A DNA stretch of 64,000 bases from Paludibacteraceae bacterium. GTDB lineage: Bacteria > Bacteroidota > Bacteroidia > Bacteroidales > Paludibacteraceae. Numbering within the stretch: the first letter of the stretch is position 1; each line of letters starts with the position of its first letter. The stretch covers positions 29,632 to 93,631 of the forward strand of contig JAFSTB010000007.1 in assembly GCA_017450685.1 (NCBI GenBank). The letters are read 5' to 3'. This document shows positions 8,560-49,082 of the stretch, piece by piece. The notes below the pieces were generated by a model. It was not told where the DNA came from, did not search any database, and saw nothing but the letters and a program-made list of their open reading frames with translations. A program made the translations under genes and the position numbers.

Positions 8560-9426
8560 CTATAAATCGGCTAAACCGTTTACTATGGCATAGATGGTCA
8601 GACCGGCAGCGGAATGGATATTCAGTTTGCGGGTTATATTCTTACGATGAGATATAACAGTATGAACAGATATAAAGAGAGCCTCTGCTATCTCTTTATT
8701 GCTCAAGCCTTTGACCACATGACGAAGCACCTCTTTCTCCCTTTCGCTCAACTCTTCATCCGTCTGTTCGGGTTCACGTTTGGCACGCTCTTTATATCCG
8801 GGCTGATGTTTGAGCGATGGAATAAGCATCTCATCCTCTATGGCACGGTGCAACATCAACTCCTCTTCCACCTCACATATATCGTGCAAGGCTGCAAACA
8901 GTTCGGCATTGGCTTGACCCGGGTAATACTTGATAATAAGACTCTTCAGTTCGGTCAGTTTGGCTGACTTATGAAGTTCATCGGTAGAGTGTTGCCGATA
9001 TTCGCTATCTATCTCTTGTTCAATATGTTTCCTCACCTCTTCTGCATACTCATCAAAAAAGCGAAGAATGAGCATCGGTATCTGACCACAAATACCTGAA
9101 ATGGCAGAAAGTAACTCTTGTCGTATGCGAGGAAACTGAAAATCAAGAAAATAGGTATGACCGTTCTTCACATAACGCAATAAAGTAGGGATATCATATA
9201 AAGTGGAAGACAATTTGTTATACTTATTAGAGACATTATGTTCGTGAAGGTCGATAGCATAGTTCATCACGCAAATAAAAGTCTCACTATCAACATCGTT
9301 TTCGCGGCACACTTCCTCTATCGTCTTTTCACCTACGCCCAATGGCAATTCAAAACGATTGATGATGGATAAGGCACGGTGCTCATCGCGCATCAATACG
9401 CTCATCTTGTCGTGAATAGTGTACAT
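8560..9426 (-). CDS. LuxR-type regulator with Ric/hemerythrin-like sensor region
   Basis: 288 residues. Residues about 225-285 form a LuxR/FixJ helix-turn-helix (LSEREKEVLRHVVKGLSNKEIA then HTVISHRKNITRKL). Residues about 18-58 resemble the DUF542/ScdA_N segment of Ric/YtfE proteins (IINRFELPLGVGEKTIEEVC). Residues about 85-205 are all-helical, with spaced H90, H134, H181, H193 and E197/E199 (LHDICEVEEELMLHRAIEDE), suggesting a di-iron hemerythrin fold. Inference: a cytoplasmic transcription factor sensing oxygen, nitric oxide or iron-centre state. Its target is not visible. tilS starts one base beyond its stop. Confidence 0.75.
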   Translation of the reverse strand: MYTIHDKMSVLMRDEHRALSIINRFELPLGVGEKTIEEVCRENDVDSETFICVMNYAIDLHEHNVSNKYNKLSSTLYDIPTLLRYVKNGHTYFLDFQFPRIRQELLSAISGICGQIPMLILRFFDEYAEEVRKHIEQEIDSEYRQHSTDELHKSAKLTELKSLIIKYYPGQANAELFAALHDICEVEEELMLHRAIEDEMLIPSLKHQPGYKERAKREPEQTDEELSEREKEVLRHVVKGLSNKEIAEALFISVHTVISHRKNITRKLNIHSAAGLTIYAIVNGLADL

Positions 9427-15247: not shown

Positions 15248-15359
15248 TTTACCTGCACTTATAAGCACTTAATTAATGTTGATAAGTGCTTATAAGTATC
15301 CGGTTTACCTGCACTTATAAGCACTTAATTAATGTTGATAAGTGCTTATAAGTATCCGG
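15248..15359. repeat. Two identical 56-bp tandem units, each a 15-bp inverted repeat
   Basis: Units 15248-15303 and 15304-15359 are identical by eye. Each contains ACTTATAAGCACTTA and its exact reverse complement separated by 11 bases (ATTAATGTTGA), a strong hairpin or operator-like palindrome. Each arm itself carries GCACTTA twice, three bases apart. There is no T-run after the hairpin, so it is not a standard intrinsic terminator in either direction. Confidence 0.95.
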
Positions 15360-15391
15360 TAATGTTAGTTATCAAAGTTTGATATATTAGA

Positions 15392-15431: not shown

Positions 15432-15497
15432 ATTAAAGTTCTTTGAGTGTAGCATTAAAGTTCTTTGAGTGTAGCATTAAAGTTCTTTGAGAGTTGC
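15432..15497 (-). repeat. Three tandem 22-bp copies of the pepD 3' end
   Basis: Copies at 15432-15453, 15454-15475 and 15476-15497. Read leftward each encodes the end of pepD (Ala-Thr-Leu-Lys-Glu-Leu-stop). The copy at 15476-15497 lies inside the gene. The other two, which are identical to each other and differ from the first at two positions, follow the stop codon. The 22-base period changes frame at each copy, so only the first is translated. Confidence 0.9.
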
Positions 15498-24909: not shown

Positions 24910-25509
24910 CTATAATTTCAGGCAACCGATGGGGATGATGCATATACCGTCAGCGCGACGGTAGGCGAGTGTACCGACAGCGGTGATAACCGCTTTGAAG
25001 GCAGGTTTGGACATCTGTTCGGTATTGATCTTCTTTTCCAGCGCATTGAGTGTCTTCACGGCAGAGGCAATAGCCTCATCACCGCCGAGTTTGATTTCCA
25101 CCAAACCATACTTACCATTTTTGAGGTGCACGATGGCATCGCACTCCAACTCCGTCTTGTCCCGATAATGGAACACTCGTCCGTCAATGGCTTCCGCATA
25201 ACACGCGCAAGTCGCGCACACAAAGCGTTTCTAAGAGGAAACCAAACGTTTTCAGGTCGTTCATCAAATCATTTGGTCCTATATGCATAGCGGCAGCAGC
25301 AATGGCAGGATCCACAAAATAGCGTGTGTCTGACGTGCGTATGGCTGTTTTGCTACGCAGGTTCGGACTCCACGCCGGCATATCCTCCACCACGAACATC
25401 TTCCTAAGAGCAGTGAGGTAGTTCTCTACCGTTTGTACTGACAATGACTCGCTTGAGAGCGAAGCCCGCATATCGTCCAAAATCACTTTTGCTGATTATA
25501 CTGTTCCAT
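24910..25509 (-). pseudogene. Decayed DUF4143-type AAA ATPase
   Basis: Two overlapping frames together spell the C-terminal DUF4143 half of an AAA_14-type ATPase. LRKMFVVEDMPAWSPNLRSKT and TSDTRYFVDPAIAAAAM lie in the first. YAEAIDGRVFHYRDKTELE and GKYGLVEIKLGGDEAI lie in the second. The frames join at about 25200, where one extra T (GTG-T-TAT) breaks RDLRV-YAEAI. The P-loop ATPase half is missing. After the ATG at 25509 only seven further codons (MEQYNQQK) precede a stop, so an internal deletion of several hundred bases is likely. A consensus promoter and a short tandem repeat remain upstream, as at the two intact relatives. Confidence 0.85.
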
Positions 25510-25529: not shown

Positions 25530-25560
25530 CAAAGGTACTACTTAATTTTCACTCAACCAA
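25530..25560 (-). promoter_or_regulatory. Promoter of the decayed DUF4143 ATPase
   Basis: Leftward: TTGG (25560-25557), 19 bases, TACCTTTG (25537-25530), 20 bases before the ATG at 25509. It is preserved although the gene is broken. Confidence 0.7.
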
Positions 25561-25571
25561 TTTTTTACGAT

Positions 25572-25611
25572 TTTTGTTTGAAAAACGGACACGGTTTTGT
25601 TTGAAAAACGG
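25572..25611 (-). repeat. 17-bp repeat in duplicate, 23-bp period, at a stop codon
   Basis: TTTTGTTTGAAAAACGG (plus strand) occurs at 25572-25588 and 25595-25611. The second copy ends at the base adjacent to the TAG stop of the FemAB-like gene (25612-25614). The array therefore fills the space between that stop and the ATPase promoter. Confidence 0.85.
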
Positions 25612-26709
25612 CTATTTGAAGTCGTGTTTTCCGCGTTTGGCTTGGCGGTAACGGCGGATAGCGAAATAGAGTTGTTTGGCTTTATCCTTGAGTCGTGTAA
25701 ACCAGCCGTATTTACTGAAAACGATATGTGGAATATAGGCATAATGACCGCCATATTTGAGTTTATAGTCCGCCATACCGCAGAAGTTAAGGTCGCCGCA
25801 TCCCTCTTGAGCCATTGTTTTGATGGCAGTCCATATCATCAGTTCGTTAGGGCAGTACTTCATATATCGTTGGAATGAAGCAGCTGTCCAAAACGAACAT
25901 TCACCTTTGTCGAGGGTCCAGATGGCGGTAGCCATTATTTGGTCGTTGCCGTTGTCGTCGTTACCATGCACTTCAAGCATCAGTATGCGGTGCGGGAAGA
26001 GTGCTTCACAGACGGCTTGCATCCGTTCGCGCTGTTGTGAGGGTTTAGGCACCGTACCTTTGCGTGCGCAAACTTCGGTTACCTGCTCGAAATGAATGCG
26101 TGTAAAGGCTTCTATGTATTCACGGCGGTCGATACGGTGAACGGTGAGACCCAGTTTAGTGGCTTTATTAACCGAGTATTTGGCTGATTTATAATGCAAT
26201 CCCGCCCACAACTCTTCCGTTGTCTTTTCATGCAAGGGCAGGTGCAAGGTAGCACGAGTGGTGTAAGGTATGGCAGCAAAATCCAACGCCGGTATTCTCA
26301 CTTCTTCGTAAGGCACCCAGTCTTGATTACCGGTGTCGAATCGTAGAGCCCAATCGTCCACTTGCAGATAGGAGGCTATATGGTCGCGGAAAAGCCAGTA
26401 GGCAAAGTCCTGATATACAGCCACTCGTTTGTCGGCTGACACGGGTTGGAAGAAGCACAGTCCTTGCGAATAGGTGCCAATGCCGTCCATTGGGGCGCAG
26501 ATCATAGTGATACCCATCCATACTTTTGTTCCGACAAAGAAACCTATATGTTGTTTGCCCTCAAAAACAGTGGTTATGAATGGTTTGCGCCCAATTCGGC
26601 GGGTATAGTCAGCCCACTGACGTGAATGGAAACAAGTGGAGTCGCAGCAAGACTCTATCATTTGCCAATCGGATGCATTGGGCTTGAGTATGGTGAAAGA
26701 ATAAATCAT
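25612..26709 (-). CDS. FemAB/GNAT-like acyltransferase
   Basis: 365 residues with no signal peptide. Two GNAT-like halves as in the FemAB/BioF2-type acetyltransferase group: an N-terminal half with FHSRQWADYTRRIG and a C-terminal half with LHYKSAKYSVNKATKLGLTV, MATAIWTLDKGECSFWTAAS and NELMIWTAIKTMAQEGCGDLNFCGM. Members in polysaccharide loci are thought to add acyl or aminoacyl groups to sugars or lipid-linked intermediates; the substrate here is unknown. It lies 13 bases after an intact ATPase gene at the distal end of the polysaccharide region. Confidence 0.75.
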   Translation of the reverse strand: MIYSFTILKPNASDWQMIESCCDSTCFHSRQWADYTRRIGRKPFITTVFEGKQHIGFFVGTKVWMGITMICAPMDGIGTYSQGLCFFQPVSADKRVAVYQDFAYWLFRDHIASYLQVDDWALRFDTGNQDWVPYEEVRIPALDFAAIPYTTRATLHLPLHEKTTEELWAGLHYKSAKYSVNKATKLGLTVHRIDRREYIEAFTRIHFEQVTEVCARKGTVPKPSQQRERMQAVCEALFPHRILMLEVHGNDDNGNDQIMATAIWTLDKGECSFWTAASFQRYMKYCPNELMIWTAIKTMAQEGCGDLNFCGMADYKLKYGGHYAYIPHIVFSKYGWFTRLKDKAKQLYFAIRRYRQAKRGKHDFK

Positions 26710-26722
26710 TAGTACAGATATA

Positions 26723-28069
26723 CTATAAGTTATTTATATTCAATTCTTCAAGTTCTGCTTGCGATTTTTTTATTTGATTTTCGAACCATGTACGCACCCT
26801 ATAGATAGGCATATTGATCAGTCCTTCGTTTTGCTTAAATGGTAGAAGACTTGTCTTTATTGCCAATTGTGGTGATTGTTCTTTTCGGTATGCGTTAAGT
26901 GACTGACTTCTAAGGTTAGTGCCTGATTTGGCTTCGATGGGAATAATCATATCATCAAACTGAACCAAGAAATCCACTTCTTGTGTAGATTGCGGTTTGG
27001 AATAATAAAAAATCGGCAAATCCAAACCTTGTAGAGACTGCAAAACATAATTCTCTACAAATGCTCCTTTATATTCAGTAAACACCTTATCGGACAGCAA
27101 CATAGCACGAGGACTTACACCGTTCATTGCTCCTAATAGTCCGACATCGGAAAGGTAGAGTTTATATGCAATGAAATCTTCATAAAACTTTAGCGGCATT
27201 TGTGGTTTTGTGACACGACTAACGGGCAGAACCAACCCGGCATCTATCAGCCATTGGACGGCAATCTCAAAATCTTTGGCTCTTGCTCCTTCTTTAACAA
27301 CGCCGTAAGTGAATTTTTTATTTTCTTTTGACAATTGAGCCGGTATGGAACGATAGACCATTGATATACGCTCAATTTGTTCTTTTGGAGCATGTTTGGA
27401 AAAATCTGACAAATAACTCTTAAGAATTGCCTCCTGCACTCTCCTTACACTTATATATGACTGTGTTTCTACGTATTTACTTATTGCTTCAGGCATACCG
27501 CCAATAAAGAAATACTGTTTTAGAAGTTCAATCAGCGTAGGATGTAATGCAGATAAAATGGGTTCATTTTCTGCTTGCAACGCATCCACCAATTGCTCTT
27601 TGCCAAGTGCTAACAAAAACTCAATAAAAGTGAAGGGATAGAGTTGCATCATATCCACTTTTCCTACAGGGAAGGAAGTACCCTCGTGCAACATCAATCC
27701 GAGCAGCGAACCGGCAACAGCAATGTGATATTCAGGTGCTTGCTCACAAAAATACTTCAAACAAGTTAATGCGCGAGGTATCTCTTGCACCTCGTCTAAC
27801 ACTATCAAGGTCTCTCCTGCCACTATGCGAGAATTAGTGTATGTCTCAAGGGCTTGAACAATATGAGAGGGAGAAAGATTGTCAAAAATATGTACCAGAT
27901 CTTCTTTTTTATCATCACAATAGACATAGACAGTATTCTTGAAATATGTTTTGCCAAACTCGTGCAATATCCATGTTTTTCCAACCTGCCGCGCACCATT
28001 CAGGATAAGAGGTTTCCTATCTGGTTTATCCTTCCACAGTGCTAATTGCCCTATTAAATATCTTTGCAT
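26723..28069 (-). CDS. DUF4143/AAA_14-type ATPase
   Basis: 448 residues. P-loop GARQVGKT at 25-32 and Walker B TLIVLDEVQEIPRAL in the N-terminal AAA_14 domain. A winged-helix-like middle (SMVYRSIPAQLSKENKKF) precedes the C-terminal DUF4143 domain with LPIFYYSKPQSTQEVDFLVQ and IPIEAKSGTNLRSQSL, a PD-(D/E)XK-like nuclease-type core (E..D..-x-EAKS). The family is abundant and multicopy in Bacteroidetes and its function is not established. It has its own promoter, preceded by a 33-bp tandem array starting at the stop of the upstream glycosyltransferase. It looks like an insertion in the polysaccharide gene order. Confidence 0.88.
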   Translation of the reverse strand: MQRYLIGQLALWKDKPDRKPLILNGARQVGKTWILHEFGKTYFKNTVYVYCDDKKEDLVHIFDNLSPSHIVQALETYTNSRIVAGETLIVLDEVQEIPRALTCLKYFCEQAPEYHIAVAGSLLGLMLHEGTSFPVGKVDMMQLYPFTFIEFLLALGKEQLVDALQAENEPILSALHPTLIELLKQYFFIGGMPEAISKYVETQSYISVRRVQEAILKSYLSDFSKHAPKEQIERISMVYRSIPAQLSKENKKFTYGVVKEGARAKDFEIAVQWLIDAGLVLPVSRVTKPQMPLKFYEDFIAYKLYLSDVGLLGAMNGVSPRAMLLSDKVFTEYKGAFVENYVLQSLQGLDLPIFYYSKPQSTQEVDFLVQFDDMIIPIEAKSGTNLRSQSLNAYRKEQSPQLAIKTSLLPFKQNEGLINMPIYRVRTWFENQIKKSQAELEELNINNL

Positions 28070-28094
28070 TTTTATATATTTTTATTAAACGGCG

Positions 28095-28124
28095 CAAAAG
28101 TACAACAAATCTTTTATTTACAAA
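28095..28124 (-). promoter_or_regulatory. Promoter of the DUF4143 ATPase at 26.7-28.1 kb
   Basis: Leftward: TTTG (28124-28121), 18 bases, TACTTTTG (28102-28095), 25 bases before the ATG at 28069. The repeat array ends 12 bases upstream of the -33 element. Confidence 0.75.
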
Positions 28125-28136
28125 AATATTTTACAT

Positions 28137-28252
28137 TTTTGTGAGCCAACTTTATGAAATGACTACACTTTTGTGAGCCAACTTTGGAAGAAAGACTACA
28201 CTTTTATGAGCCAACTTTGGAAGAAAGACTACACTTTTGTGAGCCATCTTTT
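28137..28252 (-). repeat. 33-bp tandem repeat array (3.5 copies) between a stop codon and an ATPase promoter
   Basis: Copies start at 28137 (32 bp), 28169, 28202 (33 bp each) and 28235 (partial). The plus-strand core TTTTGTGAGCCAACTTTGG is followed by a purine-rich half and CTACAC. Copies 2 and 3 differ at one base. Copy 1 differs in the middle, and copy 4 breaks off at the glycosyltransferase stop codon (28251-28253). There are no unique spacers, so it is not a CRISPR array. Confidence 0.95.
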
Positions 28253-29462
28253 AGTTTTTGTATAGTTGCAATATCTTGTCTGCGATAGTTGTCCAATTGT
28301 AGTATTGCGCCTCTTTTATGGCATTGGCTGATAGTCGTCCGTATAGTCCATCGGATGTGAGCAGGCGTACTATCTGCTCCGCCATTTGGGGTATGTTATT
28401 GAAGGTGCAGAGCAGTCCGGTAGGTTCGTTGCTTATGGCTTTTCTATGGTTCGGTTCATCATCGGCACTATTGATAACATATGGTACCCCCCCTACCCTT
28501 GTGGCAGCGACGGGCAGACCGGCAGCCATAGCTTCGGCGAAGACTATACCTTGACTCTCTTCTTGAGTATGAAGGGCGAAAAGATGCGCATCGGCGTAGA
28601 GTTGCAGCAGTTCGTCTTGGGGTATATCGGGATAAAGGGTGATACGCTCTTTGTTGGGTGAAGCAGATATATAAGAGAGCATTTGCCGGTAGGTGGTTTT
28701 GTCTTTGTTAACGCCGGCGATGACCAGTTCGGCATCAGGCACGGTAAGGCACACATGGTCGAAGGCTTGCAAAAGTTGCATTCTGCCTTTGCGGGTGGAC
28801 ATAGTGCCAACAGAGAGGATAATTTTGCGGTTGGCTCTTTTATCGGAAGGCTTAATATGAAAGAATCGGTCGTTAATACCTTGCGGGATGACATACATCT
28901 GCGGCACACGGTTCAGTCCATACTGCTCTATAGCCTCTTTCACATAGCCTGTATCCACTATGCATCGGTCGGCAAGAGTGAGTAGTCGGCGTTCGTAAAA
29001 AGACTGTCTTACATACTGGTAAAGGGCTTTCAATGAGAAACGGTGTTTGAGAGCGTTGCGTTTCTCCACGGCTGCAAGACCGTGAACGGTGAGCATCGTG
29101 CTTATATACTGCTTTTTGCACCATCGGTAGAGGTGATAGCAGAAGCGGTGAGTGCCGTGTATATGTACTGCGTCGGGACGGAAATCGGTTATCAGCCGTT
29201 GTATGTCTTTTAGTCGCGACACTGCATCTTCGTAGTGTTTGCCGTAGGTGCGGAAACGATATACTGTGAGTACGGGCGATGACCGCTTCGCTACCGCCGC
29301 TCCTTGTTCCTGTGCATCGTGTCCGTTCACACGCGGGTAGTCGATGACTACTACCTCGTGTTGCTTGGCAAGTTCGTTGGCCAAACCATAGACGGACGAC
29401 TCGGTGCCGCCTTTGATACAAGATATATCTTCCGGATATGGACCTACAAGTATAATTTTCAT
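28251..29462 (-). CDS. GT4-type glycosyltransferase
   Basis: 403 residues from the ATG at 29462 (MKIILVGPYPEDISCIKGG); an upstream extension overlaps the GT2 gene. GT-B fold of family GT4: N-terminal GGTESSVYGLANEL, DAVHIHGTHRF, and a C-terminal nucleotide-sugar site with ILSVGTMSTRKG, HLFALHTQEESQGIVFAEAMA and AAGLPVAATRVGGVP. Retaining transferase acting in the cytoplasm on a lipid-linked surface glycan. Its start overlaps the GT2 stop by four bases (ATGA), and its stop meets the 33-bp repeat array. Confidence 0.9.
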   Translation of the reverse strand: MKIILVGPYPEDISCIKGGTESSVYGLANELAKQHEVVVIDYPRVNGHDAQEQGAAVAKRSSPVLTVYRFRTYGKHYEDAVSRLKDIQRLITDFRPDAVHIHGTHRFCYHLYRWCKKQYISTMLTVHGLAAVEKRNALKHRFSLKALYQYVRQSFYERRLLTLADRCIVDTGYVKEAIEQYGLNRVPQMYVIPQGINDRFFHIKPSDKRANRKIILSVGTMSTRKGRMQLLQAFDHVCLTVPDAELVIAGVNKDKTTYRQMLSYISASPNKERITLYPDIPQDELLQLYADAHLFALHTQEESQGIVFAEAMAAGLPVAATRVGGVPYVINSADDEPNHRKAISNEPTGLLCTFNNIPQMAEQIVRLLTSDGLYGRLSANAIKEAQYYNWTTIADKILQLYKN

Positions 29463-30505
29463 CTTTTTAAGCGTAATAAAGTGCAATATAAAAGAGGAGA
29501 AATATTGGCTATATACATCTTCCACTTGTTGTGCATCTTAAAATGAGAAGTGAGTGGATAGACCTGTTTATCTTTTAGTTGTTGAAAGAGTTTATGTCGC
29601 TCGTTCCAAAAATCGCGTGCTATGAGTTGCAGAATAGACATTGTCACACCGGATATTTCACTTTTGAACCAGCGGTTATGTGATGATTGTTGTGCTGTGA
29701 GTTGCAGTGAGTCAATGAGTGACAGTTTATCGTTTAGGACTTTACGTCGTTTTTGTTCTGAAATGGAACGACTGATACTTCCCTCACGATATAAATAGTT
29801 ATATACAACATTTGTAGTAGCGTTCACTCTTTGAGCGGCGAGCATAATACGCGGAGTCCATTCCGTATCCTCGTAATATATACCATCTTTGAACAGAATA
29901 GGCGTTTTATTTGGTGATAGAAGCAGTTCTCTTCTCAAAACGAATTGAGTAGCATAACAAGCATATCCCAAGCGTTGGGCAAGATAGGTATCGCCTGTTA
30001 CTATATTAGTGTCGGTGTCAATAAGGTGTGGTGTCTTATTCACTTCAAACCGCTCAAAAACACGAGAAACGGGCGAGATATAACCGATATGATTGACATC
30101 AATATCGCTTAGTCGTGACTGATAGATAAGTCGAACATTCTGATAGTCGAACTTCAGTATATCCAAATTCTCATTCAGCATCTGTTCGACTAATATTTTT
30201 GCGGTGTTCGGCTCAATATAATCGTCTGAATCAACAAATTGCACGTACTTTCCTTCTGCTATTTCCAATCCTGAGTTTCGCGCTGCCGATAAGCCGCCGT
30301 TCTTTCGATGAATCACACGTATCAGATTAGGATAGGCTAATGCATAGTCATCACATATTTGAGGGCAACCGTCGGGTGAGCCGTCATCAACGAGGATAAT
30401 CTCATATTCATCTTGAGGCAGGTCTTGTTGCAAAAGACTGTCGATACATTTCTTGAGATATATCTCAACCTTATAGATGGGTACTATGTAACTGAGTTTC
30501 AGCAC
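29459..30505 (-). CDS. GT2 family glycosyltransferase
   Basis: 348 residues. GT-A fold, inverting. LSYIVPIYKVEIYLKKCIDSL, EIILVDDGSPDG, NGGLSAARNSGLEIA and the DxD-type FVDSDDYIEP are all present in the first 100 residues. The start is a GTG at 30505 (reading MLKLSYIVP); no in-frame ATG fits. It overlaps the next upstream glycosyltransferase by seven bases and the downstream one by four. It adds one sugar to the surface polysaccharide; donor and acceptor are unknown. Confidence 0.9.
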   Translation of the reverse strand: MLKLSYIVPIYKVEIYLKKCIDSLLQQDLPQDEYEIILVDDGSPDGCPQICDDYALAYPNLIRVIHRKNGGLSAARNSGLEIAEGKYVQFVDSDDYIEPNTAKILVEQMLNENLDILKFDYQNVRLIYQSRLSDIDVNHIGYISPVSRVFERFEVNKTPHLIDTDTNIVTGDTYLAQRLGYACYATQFVLRRELLLSPNKTPILFKDGIYYEDTEWTPRIMLAAQRVNATTNVVYNYLYREGSISRSISEQKRRKVLNDKLSLIDSLQLTAQQSSHNRWFKSEISGVTMSILQLIARDFWNERHKLFQQLKDKQVYPLTSHFKMHNKWKMYIANISPLLYCTLLRLKR

Positions 30506-31497
30506 AGTTGTTGGTATATTTGTATTATTCGTCTGGCTATGGCAGCAATCTGCAGTCCGTCTTTTTCTATTCTCTCTTTTCCTTTTGTGCGCTTGGCAAA
30601 AGCCAGTGCTTGTTGCAAAGACTCTGCCACCAAAGGTACGGCTTTATCTATCTCACTAAAGCGTATATTGTTATCTTCCACTATGTAACTGCCTTCTAAT
30701 CCTGTCAGTCTTTCTCTTACATCACCTACATCGGTGGTAACGATAGGGCAGTTGCAAGCCATCGCCTCTTTAATCACATTCGGACTGCCTTCTGTGTCGG
30801 AAGTGAGCAGCATACAGTCGGCAGCATTGATATAGGTTGCCACCTGTTCGGGTGTATGGTCATAGACAGGCACTAATATCACCGGCTTTTCGTTCTTTTC
30901 CTGTCTTTGGGCATTCAGTCTGTCCACCGCTTTTTCTGCCAAGAGCCAGTTCTTTTCCGGGCGTGAGGGGTTGGAACACCAAACGATATATCGTTTGTCG
31001 GTTTCAAAACCTACTTTCTCTCGTGCCTTACTCATCTCCATCGGGTGGAAGATATTGGTATTCACGCCGTTTGGGACGACAGGCAGTGGCAAACCTAACT
31101 GTGAACGTGTTCGTTCGGATTTGACCAATGCACCGTCCCATATATGTTTGATAAAGAACCGCACATAACGGTACTTGAAGTTATGTTTCGGAAAACTGCC
31201 AAGCAGTGAGACGAACACTTTGGGTCGGTTGCCGTTCTTATATCTCACTACGCAACAGGCTATTGAAGCCAATAAGCCACAGGTGGAATAATGAGCATGT
31301 ATGATGTCGGGTTCCTCTTTTTGTATAGTCTGCCTAAGGGCTTTAAGGTTGCTCATATAGCCTTTTAAGCCATGTCCCACAACAGGAAAAAGAAGCATCT
31401 GCTCACCTGCCTTAGCAAGCGAATCATACTGTGAGCGGACAAACGAATTGACCTGCCCCACTGCCTTATTACCCGATGCCACAAAGAGAATTTTCAT
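30499..31497 (-). CDS. GT4-type glycosyltransferase
   Basis: 332 residues beginning MKILFVASGNKAVGQVNSF. GT-B fold: PDIIHAHYSTCGLLASIACC in the acceptor domain, VPNGVNTNIFHP at the hinge, and YIVWCSNPSRPEKNW and LLTSDTEGSPNVIKEAMACN in the donor domain, including the E-x7-E-type pair of GT4. The upstream gap (31498-31583) is filled with heptamer-type repeats. Confidence 0.9.
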   Translation of the reverse strand: MKILFVASGNKAVGQVNSFVRSQYDSLAKAGEQMLLFPVVGHGLKGYMSNLKALRQTIQKEEPDIIHAHYSTCGLLASIACCVVRYKNGNRPKVFVSLLGSFPKHNFKYRYVRFFIKHIWDGALVKSERTRSQLGLPLPVVPNGVNTNIFHPMEMSKAREKVGFETDKRYIVWCSNPSRPEKNWLLAEKAVDRLNAQRQEKNEKPVILVPVYDHTPEQVATYINAADCMLLTSDTEGSPNVIKEAMACNCPIVTTDVGDVRERLTGLEGSYIVEDNNIRFSEIDKAVPLVAESLQQALAFAKRTKGKERIEKDGLQIAAIARRIIQIYQQLC

Positions 31498-31500
31498 TGG

Positions 31501-31580
31501 TAGTTTTGAGTTGAGAGTTTAGAGTTTAGAGAAGATTTTATAGTTTTGAGTTGAGAGTTGGGAGTTGGGAGTTGGGAGTT
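31501..31580. repeat. Heptamer-type short tandem repeats (GAGTT-based)
   Basis: The gap between the acyltransferase and glycosyltransferase genes is almost entirely GAGTTGA/GAGTTTA/GAGTTGG steps of seven bases. TAGTTTTGAGTTGAGAGTT occurs twice (31501-31519 and 31541-31559). It resembles the short tandemly repeated heptanucleotides described in cyanobacteria and common between genes in Bacteroidetes. A similar run lies at 49024-49082. Confidence 0.85.
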
Positions 31581-31583
31581 TGT

Positions 31584-32618
31584 TTACCACCAGCGTTTGC
31601 CGAAGAGTAAGAGGTTGAGCAACTTACTATGTCGGAAAATGTTTTGCACCGCTATCGAACAATAAGCAGCCACCAAAGCCGGCAACAAAGGTAACAATAT
31701 CTGCATTGTTATACAAGTCAGATGCAGCGAATCCCACGAATAGGATAAATGTAACAATTGACCAACATACGGACAATCAATAAGAAAAATGCTGCTAAAG
31801 AGGTAGATAGTGAGACTATGCCTTCCAAACAGTGCCAACTGACGATAAATGACGGAGTGGTGAGTAGTGGGTGACTGTGGATATGTGAAAGCAAAATAGA
31901 CTATGATAATAGCACTCAACGCAATCGGATATGCCAAAAGTTCATGAGGGTCGCTTATAGCATAATTCTCCAAATAGAACAGCCATCCATAGGACAATGC
32001 AGCAATGGTAAAGATGAGATTGTTAAACTTATTCTTAAAGTATTTCTCATAATGGAAGAAAGCGTATCCTGCTACGAAATACGGGTACGACTTCATTGCC
32101 CGATGAAAAGTGAAGATATAGTCTGCTCTTGTTTTAGTGACGAAATGTGTGACAACAAAAAGTAGTGCAAACACCAGTATATGTATAAGCAACTCTTTCC
32201 ATAGTGCGAGTGACTGACGTTGTGCGAGATAATGCAAAGAAACAAAAACAACGGTGATCCAGAACAATGACGACAGGAACCAAAGGGGATGAAAGATATG
32301 GAACAAAGCGTATAAAACCACCATATTAGACAGCCATGGCATCATCAGCGACATCGTCTTCTTGTAAACGGTTTTACCAATATAATGTTCAGGGAGTTGA
32401 GGCGGTTCGTTAGCAACGAACAGATATCCTGACAGGAAAAACAGCAAGGGCATATGAAAACTATAAATGATATGGAAAATAAACCGTACAGCGTATGGTT
32501 CATTACCATTGGGTGTTATAGGGAACAGATTGTTTGACAAAAAATGCCCGACAACCATTAAGAAGATTGCCACCCCTTTGAGAACATCTATATGTTCTAA
32601 CCTATTGATACTGTTCAT
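31584..32618 (-). CDS. Acyltransferase 3 family membrane protein
   Basis: 344 residues from the ATG at 32618; a GTG two codons earlier overlaps the carrier-protein stop and is the alternative. About ten hydrophobic segments. The N-terminal block RLEHIDVLKGVAIFLMVVGHF includes the conserved R-x-x-x-D and catalytic histidine of the family. LSGYLFVANEPP and a basic tail follow. Such enzymes O-acetylate or otherwise acylate sugars of surface polysaccharides. It is next to the carrier protein in the Dlt-like group. Confidence 0.85.
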   Translation of the reverse strand: MNSINRLEHIDVLKGVAIFLMVVGHFLSNNLFPITPNGNEPYAVRFIFHIIYSFHMPLLFFLSGYLFVANEPPQLPEHYIGKTVYKKTMSLMMPWLSNMVVLYALFHIFHPLWFLSSLFWITVVFVSLHYLAQRQSLALWKELLIHILVFALLFVVTHFVTKTRADYIFTFHRAMKSYPYFVAGYAFFHYEKYFKNKFNNLIFTIAALSYGWLFYLENYAISDPHELLAYPIALSAIIIVYFAFTYPQSPTTHHSVIYRQLALFGRHSLTIYLFSSIFLIDCPYVGQLLHLSYSWDSLHLTCITMQILLPLLPALVAAYCSIAVQNIFRHSKLLNLLLFGKRWW

Positions 32619-32620
32619 TA

Positions 32621-32860
32621 TCACAGTTTTCTTTCAATGCTATCCATTATCTCTCCCACATTCTGCCATCCCATCATCTCTCTCACGGAGAAATGGATGT
32701 TCATCTGATCCTCAATGTTGTTAATGAGTTGAGCATGAGTGAGAGAAGTCCAGCCATTGACATCCTCGGCGGTTGTTTCTTCGGTTAGGGTGATAGACTC
32801 ATCTTGCAGTTCTTGACGGAAGATATCCTGCAAACGGTTCAATAATTCGGTTCTATTCAT
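32621..32860 (-). CDS. Acyl/aminoacyl carrier protein (DltC/ACP-like)
   Basis: 79 residues. Four-helix carrier protein fold: acidic N-terminus (LLNRLQDIFRQEL), then DVNGWTSLTHAQLINNIED, where the serine of TSL is the expected 4'-phosphopantetheine site, replacing the usual DSL. VGEIMDSIERKL ends the protein. It lies 70 bases downstream of the AMP-ligase gene and touches the acyltransferase gene. Inference: it carries the group activated by the ligase, as DltC carries D-alanine. Confidence 0.85.
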   Translation of the reverse strand: MNRTELLNRLQDIFRQELQDESITLTEETTAEDVNGWTSLTHAQLINNIEDQMNIHFSVREMMGWQNVGEIMDSIERKL

Positions 32861-32930
32861 AGGGCTTTTATTTTATACTCGCCATTATATGGCGATGGTT
32901 AGACATTTTGGGAAGAATAATCTGCGATTC

Positions 32931-34445
32931 TTACAACATCTTTTTCAGTGCTGAACGGTCAATCTTATTGCTGGCATTGACGGGGAACGAGGGTACGAAA
33001 AGATATTTGGACGGCAACATATACGGTGGCAATATCGTTTTCAGATGTTCCGTTAGAGGTGTTATGTCTGTCTCTTTACTCTCAATGAACATAGACAGTT
33101 CGGTGTTGTTTTGACTATTGGTATAAGCCATCACAATGAGGTTGGTATTGTTAAGGAACAGTCTTGCGTGATGTTCTATCTCACCCAGTTCGATACGGTA
33201 GCCATTCACTTTCACTTGTGAGTCTTTTCTTCCGACAAAGAGTATATTTCCGTCGTCGGCATACATACAGAGGTCGCCTGAACGGTAATAGCGTGTGGAA
33301 AGACCTGTTTCAGGGTCAGTATAAAAGAAGAAAGCCTCGGCGTTCTTTTCCGGATTGTGCCAATAGCCTTGTGTCAGTTGTTCGCCCGACAGACAAAGTT
33401 CACCCACTCTGCCGTCTTTTATCTCGCCGTTGTTCTCGTCAAGGATAATAACCTTGCCGCTTGTCATTGAGGTGCCTATTGAGAGTACACCGTTATGCTC
33501 AATGTTGTTACCTTCACGTCGATAGCGGTAAGCGGTGCAGAAGATAGTATCTTCCGTCGGACCATACACATTGTCGATCTGTGCATTGGGAATACAATCA
33601 GCCCAAGCCTGTGTGTTATTGAGCGGTAATGCTTCTCCGCAGAACAGACTGTAACGCATTTCGGGCAGATGGATATCCTTCATATACGGCAAAAGGTACT
33701 GTATAGTGGAAGGGGTCATCAAAGCAAACGTCAGTTGGTAATCCTCAAGCAAGATATATGTATAACTCCACTTGATTTTATTATAAGGAACAGTGTAAGC
33801 GCAGGCACCTACGAGCATCGGCACGAGGTAGGACATCACGCTAAGGTCGAAAGTGAGGTCGAAACATTGCAAGCAACGGTCGTTCTTGTCCAACTGATAC
33901 CCCAAATTCCAAAAGGCATCAATAAAAGCGGAGAGGTTTTGACGGCTGAGCGGCACACCTTTGGGGACACCGGTACTACCTGATGTAAAGAGTACGTATG
34001 CCAACTCCTCTTCTGACACCTGTTTCCAATCGTGCAGGTTGAGTGCGAATGTTTGGGCTTTGGCTGTGGATATAACTACCACTTCGTTTTCATTTGCCCA
34101 ATCGCCGAAAGCAGAGTTGTCGGCGGAGTCTAAAACATAGTGTGTGCCTACTTGCTTTATGATATTGGCATTTCTTTCTATTGGTTGCAAGGGGTGCAGA
34201 GCCACGTATGCTTTGCCTTCCATCCACAGCGCAAAAATAGCGGCATAGGTATCTATATCATCGTGCAGAGCCAAGCCAAAGACCTGCTCTTTGGTGTCGG
34301 TGGAAAGTATTTGTTGTCTTATTGCTGATATGCGAAGAGCAAGTTGTGAATAGGTATAATACTTATTCGCAATACAAAAAGCACTGCAATCAGCAAAGTG
34401 TTCAAGCGAATGAACAAGCGGTGAAAGGATATTATTGCAGAACAT
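32931..34445 (-). CDS. AMP-dependent adenylation enzyme (DltA-like)
   Basis: 504 residues. ANL superfamily: core A3 YVLFTSGSTGVPKGVPLS at about 148-165, A5 NVYGPTEDTIF, A7 RYYRSGDL, A8 FVGRKDSQVKVNGYRIELGE and the A10 lysine in SNKIDRSAL. Size and order match stand-alone amino-acid adenylation enzymes such as DltA. The amino acid or acid used cannot be read from the sequence. It is immediately followed by a carrier protein, so it probably loads that protein. Its first 14 bases overlap the end of the DUF4143 ATPase gene, which appears inserted between it and the SGNH gene. Confidence 0.85.
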   Translation of the reverse strand: MFCNNILSPLVHSLEHFADCSAFCIANKYYTYSQLALRISAIRQQILSTDTKEQVFGLALHDDIDTYAAIFALWMEGKAYVALHPLQPIERNANIIKQVGTHYVLDSADNSAFGDWANENEVVVISTAKAQTFALNLHDWKQVSEEELAYVLFTSGSTGVPKGVPLSRQNLSAFIDAFWNLGYQLDKNDRCLQCFDLTFDLSVMSYLVPMLVGACAYTVPYNKIKWSYTYILLEDYQLTFALMTPSTIQYLLPYMKDIHLPEMRYSLFCGEALPLNNTQAWADCIPNAQIDNVYGPTEDTIFCTAYRYRREGNNIEHNGVLSIGTSMTSGKVIILDENNGEIKDGRVGELCLSGEQLTQGYWHNPEKNAEAFFFYTDPETGLSTRYYRSGDLCMYADDGNILFVGRKDSQVKVNGYRIELGEIEHHARLFLNNTNLIVMAYTNSQNNTELSMFIESKETDITPLTEHLKTILPPYMLPSKYLFVPSFPVNASNKIDRSALKKML

Positions 34446-35787
34446 ATTGGTTGTTTATTGGCTGATTGTTAAGGAACATAACATAATATATCGGAAGGTA
34501 GGTTATTTTGCCTTTGGTCTTAATCTCTCTGGCATTGGATAGGACAATACCTTCATTTATGTGATATTCGTTGTTGGTGGTGAAATGCGTTAAGGCACTA
34601 TGAATGGTATAGTCTCTACCCGACTTGACCTCAATGGGTAGTACAGAAAGGTTATTGAAGTCATCAATAAGGAAGTCCACTTCACCACGCTGCTTATTGT
34701 CATAGTAATAAAGTCGGTCAAAACCATGTGCTTTTAACTCTTGTGCAACCACCGACTCATACACCGTACCGAGGTTGATACTTTTCTGTTCGTTCATTAT
34801 GGCATCAACACTATATCGATATAGCAAAAAAGTCAATATACCTACATCATTGAGATAAAGTTTGAGGAGATCTTTAGTGGTTGATTCCATCAGAGGAAAT
34901 TTCGGATTGCGTATAGCCGACACGTCTAAAGCAATACCGGATTGGGTCAAATATTCAAATTCATTCTCGTAATCGGAATATTGTTTACCTTTTTTGTTTT
35001 CAATGTTCTTATACACCACCCTTTTTTTCTTGTTTTCAAGATTGGAAGGTATAAGGTCATATATCTTTCTTATTTTTAGGCTGTTCTCTTTGTCATATTG
35101 TGAAGCATCAATACCATAAAGAGTGTGTATATTGCTTTGTACCGTTCGAACATTGAACATATTTTTATCCTTAACGAAGTTGTTCACTGCTTCGGGTAGT
35201 CCGCCCACCAAAAGATAATATCTGAACAATTTCATTATATAATCATGCGTTGATATTGGCAGAGACTGACGCTTAATGAAGGCTTGACGCATAGTATATA
35301 TAGCCTCTTTGCCTACATTCATAGCCCACATAAATTCCTCAAAGTCAAGAGGATACATCTGCTGTATCTCAACGCTTCCCAATGGAACAGAAGTAGTTTG
35401 AGCAAGGGCAACACCCAATTGTGAGCCGCTGGCTATATATCTATATCTATGGTCTTGATTGAGAAATTTAAGTAGTGTAAGAAGGTGTGGATAGACTTGT
35501 ATCTCATCTAAAAAAATCAGCGTATCATGTTTGTTTCCAAGGTTATCACCTGCTATAACACCCAACTGAAAATAAAAGTCGTCTTTGCTTCTAACATTAG
35601 CAAAAATCTGCGCACTATCTTTGTCTGCCCGCAAATCAATCTCTACATAATGCTCAAATAATTGTTGTCCTACATAACGAATAATATATGACTTGCCTAT
35701 CTGTCGCGCACCGTTGAGCAACATTATCTTGTCAGACTTTTGTTCTAAAAAATCCCTTAAATATATTGAAAATTTACGCTCTAACAT
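34432..35787 (-). CDS. DUF4143/AAA_14-type ATPase
   Basis: 451 residues from the ATG at 35787 (MLERKFSIYLRDFLEQ). A longer in-frame reading to 36009 is rejected: it crosses the promoter and would translate a DNA tandem repeat as WKNDKN repeats. P-loop GARQIGKS at 26-33, Walker B TLIFLDEIQVYPHLL, and a C-terminal nuclease-like core FDRLYYYDNKQRGEVDFLID with LPIEVKSGRDYTIHS. The two intact DUF4143 proteins are clearly related but far from identical. It has its own promoter and is embedded between the SGNH and AMP-ligase genes of the Dlt-like group. Confidence 0.87.
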   Translation of the reverse strand: MLERKFSIYLRDFLEQKSDKIMLLNGARQIGKSYIIRYVGQQLFEHYVEIDLRADKDSAQIFANVRSKDDFYFQLGVIAGDNLGNKHDTLIFLDEIQVYPHLLTLLKFLNQDHRYRYIASGSQLGVALAQTTSVPLGSVEIQQMYPLDFEEFMWAMNVGKEAIYTMRQAFIKRQSLPISTHDYIMKLFRYYLLVGGLPEAVNNFVKDKNMFNVRTVQSNIHTLYGIDASQYDKENSLKIRKIYDLIPSNLENKKKRVVYKNIENKKGKQYSDYENEFEYLTQSGIALDVSAIRNPKFPLMESTTKDLLKLYLNDVGILTFLLYRYSVDAIMNEQKSINLGTVYESVVAQELKAHGFDRLYYYDNKQRGEVDFLIDDFNNLSVLPIEVKSGRDYTIHSALTHFTTNNEYHINEGIVLSNAREIKTKGKITYLPIYYVMFLNNQPINNQYVLQ

Positions 35788-35807
35788 CGTTCTGTTGAAA
35801 AATCGTG

Positions 35808-35837
35808 CAAAGGTACTAATAATTATTGAATTACAAA
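35808..35837 (-). promoter_or_regulatory. Promoter of the DUF4143 ATPase at 34.4-35.8 kb
   Basis: Leftward: TTTG (35837-35834), 18 bases, TACCTTTG (35815-35808), 20 bases before the ATG at 35787. Five bases separate the -33 element from the repeat array. Confidence 0.8.
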
Positions 35838-35841
35838 AACA

Positions 35842-35930
35842 TTTGTCATTTTTCCATACTTTTTCCTGGTGATTTTTGTCATTTTTCCATAGTTTTTTCG
35901 GGCGATTTTTGTCATTTTTCCATAGTTTTT
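35842..35930 (-). repeat. 33-bp tandem repeat array (2.7 copies) overlapping the SGNH gene end
   Basis: TTTGTCATTTTTCCATA starts at 35842, 35875 and 35908, an exact 33-base period, with variation in the second half of the unit. Read leftward, the first copy provides the last codons and TGA stop of the SGNH-like gene (Thr-Met-Glu-Lys-stop, stop at 35912-35914). The later copies lie between that stop and the ATPase promoter. Confidence 0.95.
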
Positions 35931-36943
35931 GGCTGTTCAATGAGCGTTGAGCCATAGATATCTTGCAGCATATACCAGCCGAGACGAGTACCGAAATGTA
36001 CGGGGTCAAAGAAGTCGTTATAGTCGGAAGTGAGTTGAGGGTCGGTGGTGAAATCCCACACGCGCTCCTTGCCGAAGATATGCTGCAACACCTCTAAGTC
36101 GGCAGTATTGAGATAAGGATGTACATATCGGTAAGCAGGAGTGATGATGATATGGTAGTCGGTATGCTGCTTGTCGAACACTGCTTTTATATCGCACAGT
36201 ATCTGTTGCATACGGCTGTTGATGACGGCTTTGGACATTTTCACATCCGCTTCAGTGCGATTATTCACCTCTGCGAAGAAAGTGCGTCGCGTGACTTCCG
36301 AACAGTTTTTCAGGCTGTCCTGTGGTGGTAGCACGTCATAGTGATAGCGGTTATAGGCAAAGAAATCGTTGGTAACGGTGTCGTTGTCGAACGGTTCTTT
36401 CACACCGTTTACAGTACGCTTGATATTGGTCCACCAGAATGACGGTCGTTGCAAGAAATTCAGATATTCGTGTGTATGGTAGAGCCATTCGGGTTCGCCT
36501 GACAGCCGCCAATGCTTCATACTGACCGCCTCATAACCGTACTGTCGGTTGCTGAAGAAGCCGGGTATGTCGATTAGAACGAGAGAATAGTCGATATGAG
36601 CATTTTGTTTATCAAGCCATTCCACTTTTTGTTTGACCCCTGTTATCGTTTCGGCGTATGCTTGAAAGAGGAAAGTGGATGCTGAGTCAGGCAAATACAA
36701 AGCCCATGTATAGGTGTTTAGTCCGCTGGCTTGCGAAGAGCCGAAAACGAAGGCATTATAATGATAAGTAGAGTGGTTGCGGCGGAAGAGTTCAGTGGAT
36801 GCATATTCGCGGTTGGTGGCATCGGTGTCGTTGATGTCGAAAGGATGCAAGGTACGGAACGGGTCGGTCCATAAGTACAGACCTAACGCAATGAGCATCG
36901 GAACACCGGCTATGACTAATATGGAAAGGAGAAATCGCTTCAT
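35912..36943 (-). CDS. DltD/AlgX-like SGNH-type protein, membrane anchored
   Basis: 343 residues. One N-terminal membrane segment (about 4-24), then a periplasmic SGNH-like domain. The nucleophile serine is in FVFGSSQASG (about residue 70), and a late NDFFDPVHFGTRLGWYML block supplies the D-x-x-H pair. Such proteins work with MBOAT transferases: DltD with DltB, AlgX/AlgJ with AlgI. It lies 37 bases after the MBOAT gene in the same direction. Its final codons are the first unit of a 33-bp tandem repeat, so the original C-terminus may have been changed. Confidence 0.75.
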   Translation of the reverse strand: MKRFLLSILVIAGVPMLIALGLYLWTDPFRTLHPFDINDTDATNREYASTELFRRNHSTYHYNAFVFGSSQASGLNTYTWALYLPDSASTFLFQAYAETITGVKQKVEWLDKQNAHIDYSLVLIDIPGFFSNRQYGYEAVSMKHWRLSGEPEWLYHTHEYLNFLQRPSFWWTNIKRTVNGVKEPFDNDTVTNDFFAYNRYHYDVLPPQDSLKNCSEVTRRTFFAEVNNRTEADVKMSKAVINSRMQQILCDIKAVFDKQHTDYHIIITPAYRYVHPYLNTADLEVLQHIFGKERVWDFTTDPQLTSDYNDFFDPVHFGTRLGWYMLQDIYGSTLIEQPKTMEK

Positions 36944-49009: not shown

Positions 49010-49023
49010 AATCCGATATAATA

Positions 49024-49082
49024 AACTCTCAACTCTAAACTACCAAAACTTCTCTCAACTCTAAACTTTCAACTCTCAACTT
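49024..49082. repeat. Heptamer-type short tandem repeats (CAACTCT-based)
   Basis: The yicC-gmk gap is made of CAACTCT, AAACTCT and AAACTTT steps, for example TCTCAACTCTAAACT at two places. It has the same sequence class as the run at 31501-31580 but on the opposite strand, and it directly follows the yicC stop at 49086. Confidence 0.85.

What the first reader, a model, noticed from the sequence alone, without database searches (positions are those of the whole stretch)
25530..35930. Three DUF4143 ATPase loci share one architecture: stop codon, tandem array, promoter, ATPase
At 25.5, 28.1 and 35.8 kb a tandem array begins at or within a few bases of the upstream gene's stop codon. It runs to within 5-12 bases of a TTTG-N18/19-TAnnTTTG promoter, and a DUF4143-type ATPase gene (one now decayed) follows 20-25 bases later. 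The repeat sequences are different at each locus (periods 33, 33 and 23 bp) but all contain an ACAAAA core on the transcribed strand. The arrays cannot be simple paralogous copies, since the unit changes while position and period are kept. Possible explanations: the ATPase gene arrives as a module that duplicates local DNA, the arrays are operators read by the ATPase or a partner, or they buffer read-through from the host operon. I know of no described mechanism linking this family to tandem arrays.
Basis: partly seen in the sequence, partly recalled or inferred. Interest (0 to 1): 0.78.

Follow-up and report, generated by a model that had tools for sequence, protein, structure and literature searches.

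The report
Defence-candidate ATPase genes carry operator-like arrays
A very common family of bacterial ATPase genes, suspected of fighting phages, often carries its own row of short DNA repeats in front of it; repeat spacing and sequence follow the protein family across bacterial phyla, which suggests a private control switch that travels with the gene.

Summary
Among 190 non-redundant AAA_14/DUF4143 genes, 139 have an upstream tandem array of period 22-24 or 32-34 bp; 18 of 365 control genes do. The period follows the protein subfamily: 22/23/46 bp in 54 of 62, 32-34 bp in 72 of 95, also outside Bacteroidota (20 of 29 loci; 9 of 14 plasmids examined). Within arrays a core of about 15-19 bp is conserved while the rest varies. 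Unit sequence tracks the protein; flanking DNA hardly does. Arrays lie against or over the core promoter, on either side. Close relatives share array, promoter and gene but often little beyond; two filled/empty site pairs show insertion between operon genes. The proteins match PADLOC's phage-defence candidate PDC-S01. Best explanation: a transferable single-gene defence candidate with a private operator array, probably read by the ATPase itself (inferred, untested). "Array starts at the stop codon" is local (12 of 72), not a rule.

The parts
25568..25611 (-). 23-bp tandem array, two imperfect copies, starting directly after the stop codon of the FemAB-like gene (25612-26709)
   Evidence: the orthologous site in G570 (L284) has about five 23-bp units and an intact gene
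25530..25537 (-). TAnnTTTG (-7) box of the decayed locus
   Evidence: by eye
24910..25509 (-). decayed 23-bp-class AAA_14/DUF4143 ATPase: start region kept, ATPase part deleted, frameshift in the DUF4143 part
25612..26709 (-). FemAB/GNAT-like gene, host operon, downstream neighbour of the 28-kb module
26723..28069 (-). 33-bp-class AAA_14+DUF4143 ATPase (448 aa), PADLOC PDC-S01
28095..28102 (-). -7 box TACTTTTG; -33 TTTG at 28121-28124, spacing 18
   Evidence: by eye
28132..28251 (-). 33-bp array, 3.7 copies; core GGCTCAnAAAAnTGTA; four copies here, elsewhere in the genome only two places with 2 mismatches (reversed-pattern control also two)
28251..29525 (-). glycosyltransferase, upstream gene whose stop abuts the array
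34432..35787 (-). 33-bp-class AAA_14+DUF4143 ATPase (451 aa from the ATG), PADLOC PDC-S01; its end overlaps the start of the next gene
35808..35815 (-). -7 box TACCTTTG; -33 TTTG at 35834-35837, spacing 18
   Evidence: by eye
35842..35930 (-). 33-bp array, 2.7 copies; the stop codon of the upstream gene lies inside the first copy
35912..35953 (-). last 13 codons and stop of the 343-aa upstream gene, not matched by its closer homologues; probably brought or created by the module
   Evidence: eight fetched homologues align only to residue 330-332; two remote ones (31-33% identity) align to 337-338

Best explanation
Each locus is a self-contained single-gene module of about 1.5 kb: tandem array + promoter + AAA_14/DUF4143 (ATPase with a PD-(D/E)XK-like domain) gene, the candidate phage-defence family PDC-S01. 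Modules spread horizontally; in operons they sit at the junction between two genes. The array is a row of head-to-tail protein-binding sites: a core of about 15-19 bp repeated every 23 bp (about two helical turns) or every 33 bp (about three), set against or over the core promoter, on either side of it. The most likely reader is the ATPase itself, lining up along the array as a head-to-tail oligomer and keeping its own gene shut (autorepression) until an event such as infection changes its state. SHOWN: association, clade-linked period, conserved core, unit-protein co-inheritance, promoter-adjacent position, co-transfer of array and gene in close pairs, two empty sites. INFERRED: binding by the ATPase, oligomer, repression, release, defence role.
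For: Association 139/190 v 18/365. Period linked to protein clade: 54/62 and 72/95. Adjacent copies mismatch at 0.05-0.22 of core positions (one at 0.37) and 0.23-0.44 of linker positions in the 33-bp class, and at 0.03-0.17 (one at 0.27) against 0.15-0.36 in the 23-bp class; the spread over positions exceeds all 60 random-phase draws and the profile persists with majority-letter phasing. Unit similarity tracks protein identity on the same strand only (rho 0.385 and 0.640; 0 of 999 permutations each), also for a single copy (0.308, 0.514), the upstream flank much less (0.129, 0.165). The unit follows the protein, not the host: both classes sit in G000, and related proteins in Lachnospiraceae and Bacteroidales share a TCGnnnGAAAAAGTG-like core. 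Arrays lie directly upstream of the promoter, span it, or fill the stretch from the -7 box to just before ATG; repression by occlusion works from both sides, classical activation does not (general knowledge). On Collinsella and Acinetobacter plasmids the last unit reaches the region just before a TATACT -10-like hexamer (by eye). The own core is rare outside the own 320-bp upstream region: 143 hits inside, 15 outside in 848,515 bp of 57 loci, nine of these being further copies of the own array (L207, L213, L113); reversed-pattern control 2.
Against: No binding or expression data. Structure prediction was off and no solved relative covers the protein, so a DNA-binding domain was not shown. Sliding-window covariation did not localise a recognition region. 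Paralogues in one genome do not avoid similar units (23 pairs), so no selection for insulation was seen. 22 of 95 in the 33-bp clade and 6 of 62 in the 23-bp clade have no array over threshold; one 33-bp subclade (L061, L073, L098, L115, L118) shows none at all, so the array is not indispensable.
Confidence: 0.55

Rival explanations
1. The array is the recognition end of a minimal self-mobilising element: the ATPase-nuclease binds its array and promotes its own copying or integration, so that array + gene is a selfish single-gene mobile element.
For: In DUF4143 pairs at 80% identity or more, upstream homology has medians of about 99-129 bp and downstream homology has median 0 (under 50 bp in 46 of 56 pairs; 66 of 76 counting pairs down to 70%). 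At empty site B the right edge is at the ATPase stop codon. In L213, L214 and L217, and in L113, a second copy of the array lies downstream of the gene.
Against: Arrays are normally on one side only. Control gene pairs contrast clearly only at 88% identity or more; below that many controls also have short downstream homology (22 of 42 control pairs overall are under 50 bp). No target duplication was seen by eye at sites A and B, although the flanks are diverged. A position over the promoter is better explained by regulation.
Confidence: 0.2
2. A separate host DNA-binding protein, for example a silencer of foreign DNA, reads the arrays.
For: Units are mostly A+T-rich and lie on genes that appear to be transferred.
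Against: Unit and period follow the ATPase clade across hosts and phyla, and two classes coexist in one genome.
Confidence: 0.1
3. The array acts in RNA or buffers read-through from the upstream operon.
For: 27 of 55 scorable 33-bp loci have the array between promoter and ATG, so it is transcribed there; in operons it sits between genes.
Against: In 37 of 43 scorable 23-bp loci and 18 of 55 scorable 33-bp loci the array lies upstream of the -7 box. No Rfam match in 24.5-37 kb. Inverted repeats reach p<=0.05 in only 14 of 77 (33-bp) and 1 of 55 (23-bp) units.
Confidence: 0.08
4. Neutral slippage arrays that hitch-hike in AT-rich upstream DNA.
For: Copy number varies between near-identical genes (L213 against L214 and L217).
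Against: Two discrete clade-linked periods, conserved core with variable linker, and occurrence across phyla.
Confidence: 0.04

Closest known systems
PDC-S01, phage-defence candidate family (PADLOC; ATPase fused to a PD-(D/E)XK-type domain)
   Same: Window proteins match PDC-S01 models over nearly their full length (E 1.4e-170 and 4e-176). PMC12988326 (passages read) calls it the fourth most common defence across prokaryotes, an ATPase fused to a PD-(D/E)-X-K member, with experimental validation pending for most PDCs.
   Different: No upstream array is mentioned in the passages read of PMC12988326 and PMC13356809. The defining preprint (Payne et al. 2024) is not held; only its reference entry was seen.
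Iteron arrays of plasmid Rep proteins and other direct-repeat operator arrays (recalled, no call)
   Same: Head-to-tail repeats of about 20 bp near the gene of the presumed binder, spaced near whole helical turns.
   Different: Also on chromosomes, several different arrays per genome, no replication role indicated, two discrete periods linked to protein clades.
Archaeal Orc1/Cdc6 with origin recognition boxes (recalled, no call)
   Same: AAA+ protein gene next to repeated binding sites.
   Different: Many copies per genome, in single-gene modules; nothing points to an origin.
Homing endonucleases and other single-gene mobile elements (recalled, no call)
   Same: A nuclease-like single gene found alone at many sites.
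   Different: At the two empty sites it inserted between genes; carries a cis array; no recognition site or homing shown.

Membership tests
AAA_14 + DUF4143 ATPases (Pfam PF13173, PF13635) | both domains over the curated cut-off | tested here: met
   100.4 and 110.3 bits (26723-28069); 77.9 and 87.2 bits (34432-36009)
PDC-S01 (PADLOC) | near full-length match to PDC-S01 models | tested here: met
   E 1.4e-170 and 4e-176; a 23-bp-class protein (L072) E 1.9e-63
PDC-S01 (PADLOC) | anti-phage activity | not testable with these tools
   needs phage challenge
operator / iteron array | head-to-tail repeats with a conserved core at constant spacing beside the promoter | tested here: met
operator / iteron array | site sequence co-inherited with the presumed binder | tested here: met
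   (correlation only; pairs not independent; residue level inconclusive)
operator / iteron array | bound by the gene's product, with effect on expression | not testable with these tools
   bench only
CRISPR array | repeats separated by long unique spacers | tested here: not met
   units repeat head-to-tail; the variable part of the unit is only about 8 bp (23-bp class) or about 13 bp (33-bp class); no Rfam match in 24.5-37 kb; cas genes were not searched for
insertion sequence / transposon | terminal inverted repeats, target-site duplication, transposase | tested here: inconclusive
   no target duplication seen by eye at empty sites A and B, but flanks are diverged; terminal inverted repeats not searched for systematically
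element flanked by att-like direct repeats | same repeat on both sides | tested here: inconclusive
   seen in the L213/L214/L217 group and in L113; in the own-core search of 57 loci, hits within 300 bp after the gene end came from very few loci (5 hits in all)

The most novel reading that the evidence does not exclude
One of the most abundant candidate defence genes in prokaryotes is a single-gene mobile element whose cis array is both its private operator and its mobility or recognition end: the ATPase-nuclease forms a helical, helix-phased oligomer on its own array, which represses the gene and marks the DNA it mobilises or spares as self.
Probability: 0.17. Interest if true: 0.93.

Novelty: new variant of a known kind. 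Interest (0 to 1): 0.82.

Why it matters
PDC-S01 genes are counted in tens of thousands (9,986 archaeal and 29,494 bacterial systems in PMC12988326, passages read) and experimental validation is said to be pending for most such candidates. A cis array that names its own presumed binding site gives an immediate biochemical handle: cores of about 15-19 bp, predicted spacing, and natural variants for specificity swaps in laboratory strains. It could show how a very common candidate defence gene is kept silent and how it travels alone, and the array can serve as a marker for annotating intact, decayed and lost copies.

Tried and rejected
Solved-structure search: only Midasin segments for the 33-bp class and nothing for the 23-bp class. 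Sliding-window covariation of protein segment with unit: no consistent peak. Avoidance of similar units among paralogues in one genome: no sign (23 pairs). Palindromic operator as a general rule: rejected, 14 of 77 and 1 of 55 units at p<=0.05. 'Array begins at the stop codon' as a rule: rejected, 12 of 72. Local-DNA duplication: not supported. RNA family: no Rfam match in 24.5-37 kb. A search of fetched loci for further empty sites gave sites A and B and the mixed site C. The 28-kb module is also missing in G570, but its two neighbours lie apart there, so that is no clean empty site. Papers: 'DUF4143' is in 1 held paper; with 'tandem repeat' 0. Two combined-term searches gave 0. Searches for COG1373, AAA_14, PDC-S01, phage defence candidate and guilt-by-embedding were judged from the listings, and passages of three papers were read; none of what I saw mentions upstream arrays. 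Subscription papers and preprints are largely not held, so this says nothing wider.
Full report
WHAT WAS CHECKED. The window holds arrays at 28132-28251 (33 bp, 3.7 copies) and 35842-35930 (33 bp, 2.7 copies) and a weaker 23-bp pair at about 25568-25611. Each stands before a TAnnTTTG promoter box and an AAA_14/DUF4143 gene; the one at 24.9-25.5 kb is decayed.

THE SAME GENOME. DUF4143 matches at 12 places and AAA_14 at 17 in G000 (fragments and weak hits included). L016, L017 and L019 (other contigs) also carry 33-bp arrays in front of the gene, and L155 carries a 23-bp array. Shorter DUF4143 proteins such as L013 and L018 show none. Not every copy was examined: the C35 copy (L009/L015) was not.

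SURVEY. Loci and stretches came from 61 same-genus genomes (57 with DUF4143 matches), 200 and 150 same-family genomes (124 and 42 with matches at the limits set), 296 same-phylum genomes (26 with matches), 49 named loci from one protein scan of genome contigs and two plasmid loci. I fetched only part of the listed matches: 60 stretches and at most 30 loci per search. The choice was by protein match; within the genus I mostly chose matches of about 420 aa or more, so shorter DUF4143 subfamilies are under-sampled. Kept were ORFs of 330 aa or more with at least 150 bases upstream; after removing proteins at 95% identity or more, 190 genes remained. A lag scan (15-60) of the 250 bases upstream, with the threshold at the 99th percentile of 950 dinucleotide shuffles, gave 145 positives: period 22 (5), 23 (51), 32 (18), 33 (64), 34 (1), 46 (3) and single cases of 15, 25 and 31. 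Of 365 control genes from the long loci (44 near a DUF4143 start were excluded), 46 were positive, 18 of them at 22-24 or 32-34 (13 at period 22). Many of the 25 top controls listed are runs of short units; one is an array just downstream of an ATPase (L214) and one an array without ATPase (L096).

CLADES. In a FastTree tree the period follows the protein. The clade starting M..Y..RIAD...GAVLIEGPKWCGKT has 22, 23 or 46 in 54 of 62 (six below threshold, two other periods); the clade M..R.I...L..WK..RKPL...GARQVGKT has 32-34 in 72 of 95 (22 below threshold, one at 31). The decayed 25.5-kb gene matches the 23-bp clade, which explains why its period differs from its two neighbours. A more distant group (L171-L179) shows 22-bp arrays in some members. 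A subclade of the 33-bp clade (L061, L073, L098, L115, L118) has none.

OUTSIDE BACTEROIDOTA. Counting only period 32-34: 20 of 29 non-Bacteroidota and 14 of 16 Bacteroidota named loci are positive (four further loci could not be counted). Many are metagenome assemblies, so some labels may be wrong. Complete plasmid records are firmer: of 60 matching records I examined 14, chosen for taxonomic spread; 9 are positive: Fusobacterium, Collinsella, Vibrio, Acinetobacter towneri, Criblamydia, Segatella (two), Prevotella and Agathobacter. Glaesserella, Ruminococcus, two Parabacteroides and Acinetobacter sp. PK01 (start codon uncertain) are below threshold. Archaea were not sampled.

ANATOMY OF THE UNIT. 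Phasing the units, starting from motifs seen by eye, gives AAnTnnnnnGAAAAAGTGT for the 33-bp class and GCCAAATTnCnnAATAAA for the 23-bp class. In the 33-bp class adjacent copies mismatch at 0.05-0.22 at positions 1-19 (0.37 at position 10) and at 0.23-0.44 in the remaining 13; in the 23-bp class at 0.03-0.17 at positions 4-18 (0.27 at position 11) and at 0.15-0.36 elsewhere. The spread over positions (0.114 and 0.091) exceeds the largest of 60 random-phase draws (0.054 and 0.052), and the profile persists when only majority letters are used for phasing. So the conserved core is about 19 or 15 bp, and the two periods differ by about one helical turn (inference). Among loci with a TAnnTTTG box in 300 bp, the array is upstream of it in 18, downstream in 27 and spanning in 10 of 55 (33-bp class), and upstream in 37, downstream in 5 and spanning in 1 of 43 (23-bp class). 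In L077, L087, L099 and L103 the last repeat runs up to the ATG.

CO-INHERITANCE. Unit similarity rises with protein identity on the same strand (rho 0.385 in 2,926 pairs, 0.640 in 1,485 pairs; 0 of 999 permutations each) and not on the opposite strand. A single copy gives 0.308 and 0.514, the stretch just upstream of the array 0.129 and 0.165, the first bases of the gene 0.475 and 0.366. These pairs are not independent. The 28-kb unit occurs elsewhere in G000 only twice, each with two mismatches, as often as the reversed-pattern control.

CO-TRANSFER AND EMPTY SITES. Among 76 DUF4143 pairs at 70-100% protein identity from different loci, upstream homology has medians of 129, 119, 99 and 62 bp in the bands 95-100, 88-95, 80-88 and 70-80%, and downstream homology is under 50 bp in 66. 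The 42 control pairs contrast at high identity (medians 999 and 998 bp at 95% or more; 975 and 209 at 88-95%) but less below that (274 and 0 at 80-88%; 0 and 0 at 70-80%); 22 of 42 are under 50 bp downstream. Seven of the 18 DUF4143 pairs at 95% or more keep 50 bp or more of downstream homology, so not all are moved copies. Site A: in relative G570 the genes on both sides of the 34.4-35.9 kb module are adjacent, with no ATPase and no array. Of 11 other genomes with a homologue of the upstream gene I fetched eight; none of the eight stretches has this ATPase, and all eight homologues align only to residue 330-332 of the 343-residue window protein; two of the three not fetched are remote (31-33% identity) and align to 337-338. 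So the last 11-13 codons probably come with the module. Site B: L102 has a module where L092 has none; the right junction is two bases after the ATPase stop codon, and by eye the upstream ORF has a new tail. Site C: L059 and L074 share flanks; L074 keeps the array, promoter and start of the L059-type module but not its gene, and has another module nearby. The decayed window locus has an intact orthologue with a longer array in G570. In L213, L214, L217 and L113 a second array copy lies downstream of the gene.

IDENTITY. Window and related proteins match PADLOC's PDC-S01; NCBIfam and PHROGs give nothing specific. PMC12988326 (passages) calls PDC-S01 the fourth most common defence and an ATPase fused to a PD-(D/E)-X-K member; PMC13356809 (passages including part of the abstract) reports it as the most frequent individual locus in its rumen set; PMC10782964 (passages) lists COG1373, a predicted AAA+ ATPase, with 19 in its table of horizontally shared genes. 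That COG1373 is this family is recalled.

MECHANISM. A row of conserved core sites at near helix-phased spacing, tied in sequence to the gene it precedes and placed over or beside its promoter, is most simply an operator read by the gene's own product. Position on both sides of the promoter favours repression. Steps not shown: binding, oligomer, repression, release by phage. The strongest alternative is that the array is also the end of a self-moving gene; the flanking arrays and short shared flanks fit this, the usual one-sidedness does not.

Noticed in passing
L213, L214, L217 (after the ATPase stop); L113 (about 220 bp after the stop): A second copy of the module's own array lies downstream of the gene, so the gene is flanked by direct repeats.
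   Followed up: partly
L074 around 8770-8860: Relic of a 23-bp-class module: array, promoter and start codon nearly identical to L059, gene gone, with a different (33-bp-class) module nearby.
   Followed up: partly
L096, about 13600-13960 (+ strand): A 23-bp array in the intergenic region of two divergent genes without an adjacent ATPase.
   Followed up: no
L102, upstream of 9847 (+): A different ATPase gene (FGRDDECRRIDSLL...GRRRVGKT) has about three copies of a 54-bp unit upstream; arrays may extend to other ATPase families.
   Followed up: no
window 31508-31580 and 49022-49081: Arrays of about 7-bp units (GAGTTGA / TAAACTCTCAACTC type); similar ones occur near other genes in the genus.
   Followed up: no
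window 15248-15360 and 15432-15491: An exact 56-bp tandem duplication, and a 22-bp array of 2.7 identical copies, between the 809-aa and 481-aa ORFs.
   Followed up: no
stretches fetched: Several contigs end soon after a module, as if assemblies break there (contig lengths in those calls); not tested.
   Followed up: no
L110, upstream of 14982 (-): A 20-bp-period array (10-bp sub-units, AACGATTCTA type) fills about 290 bp upstream of a membrane-protein-like gene.
   Followed up: no
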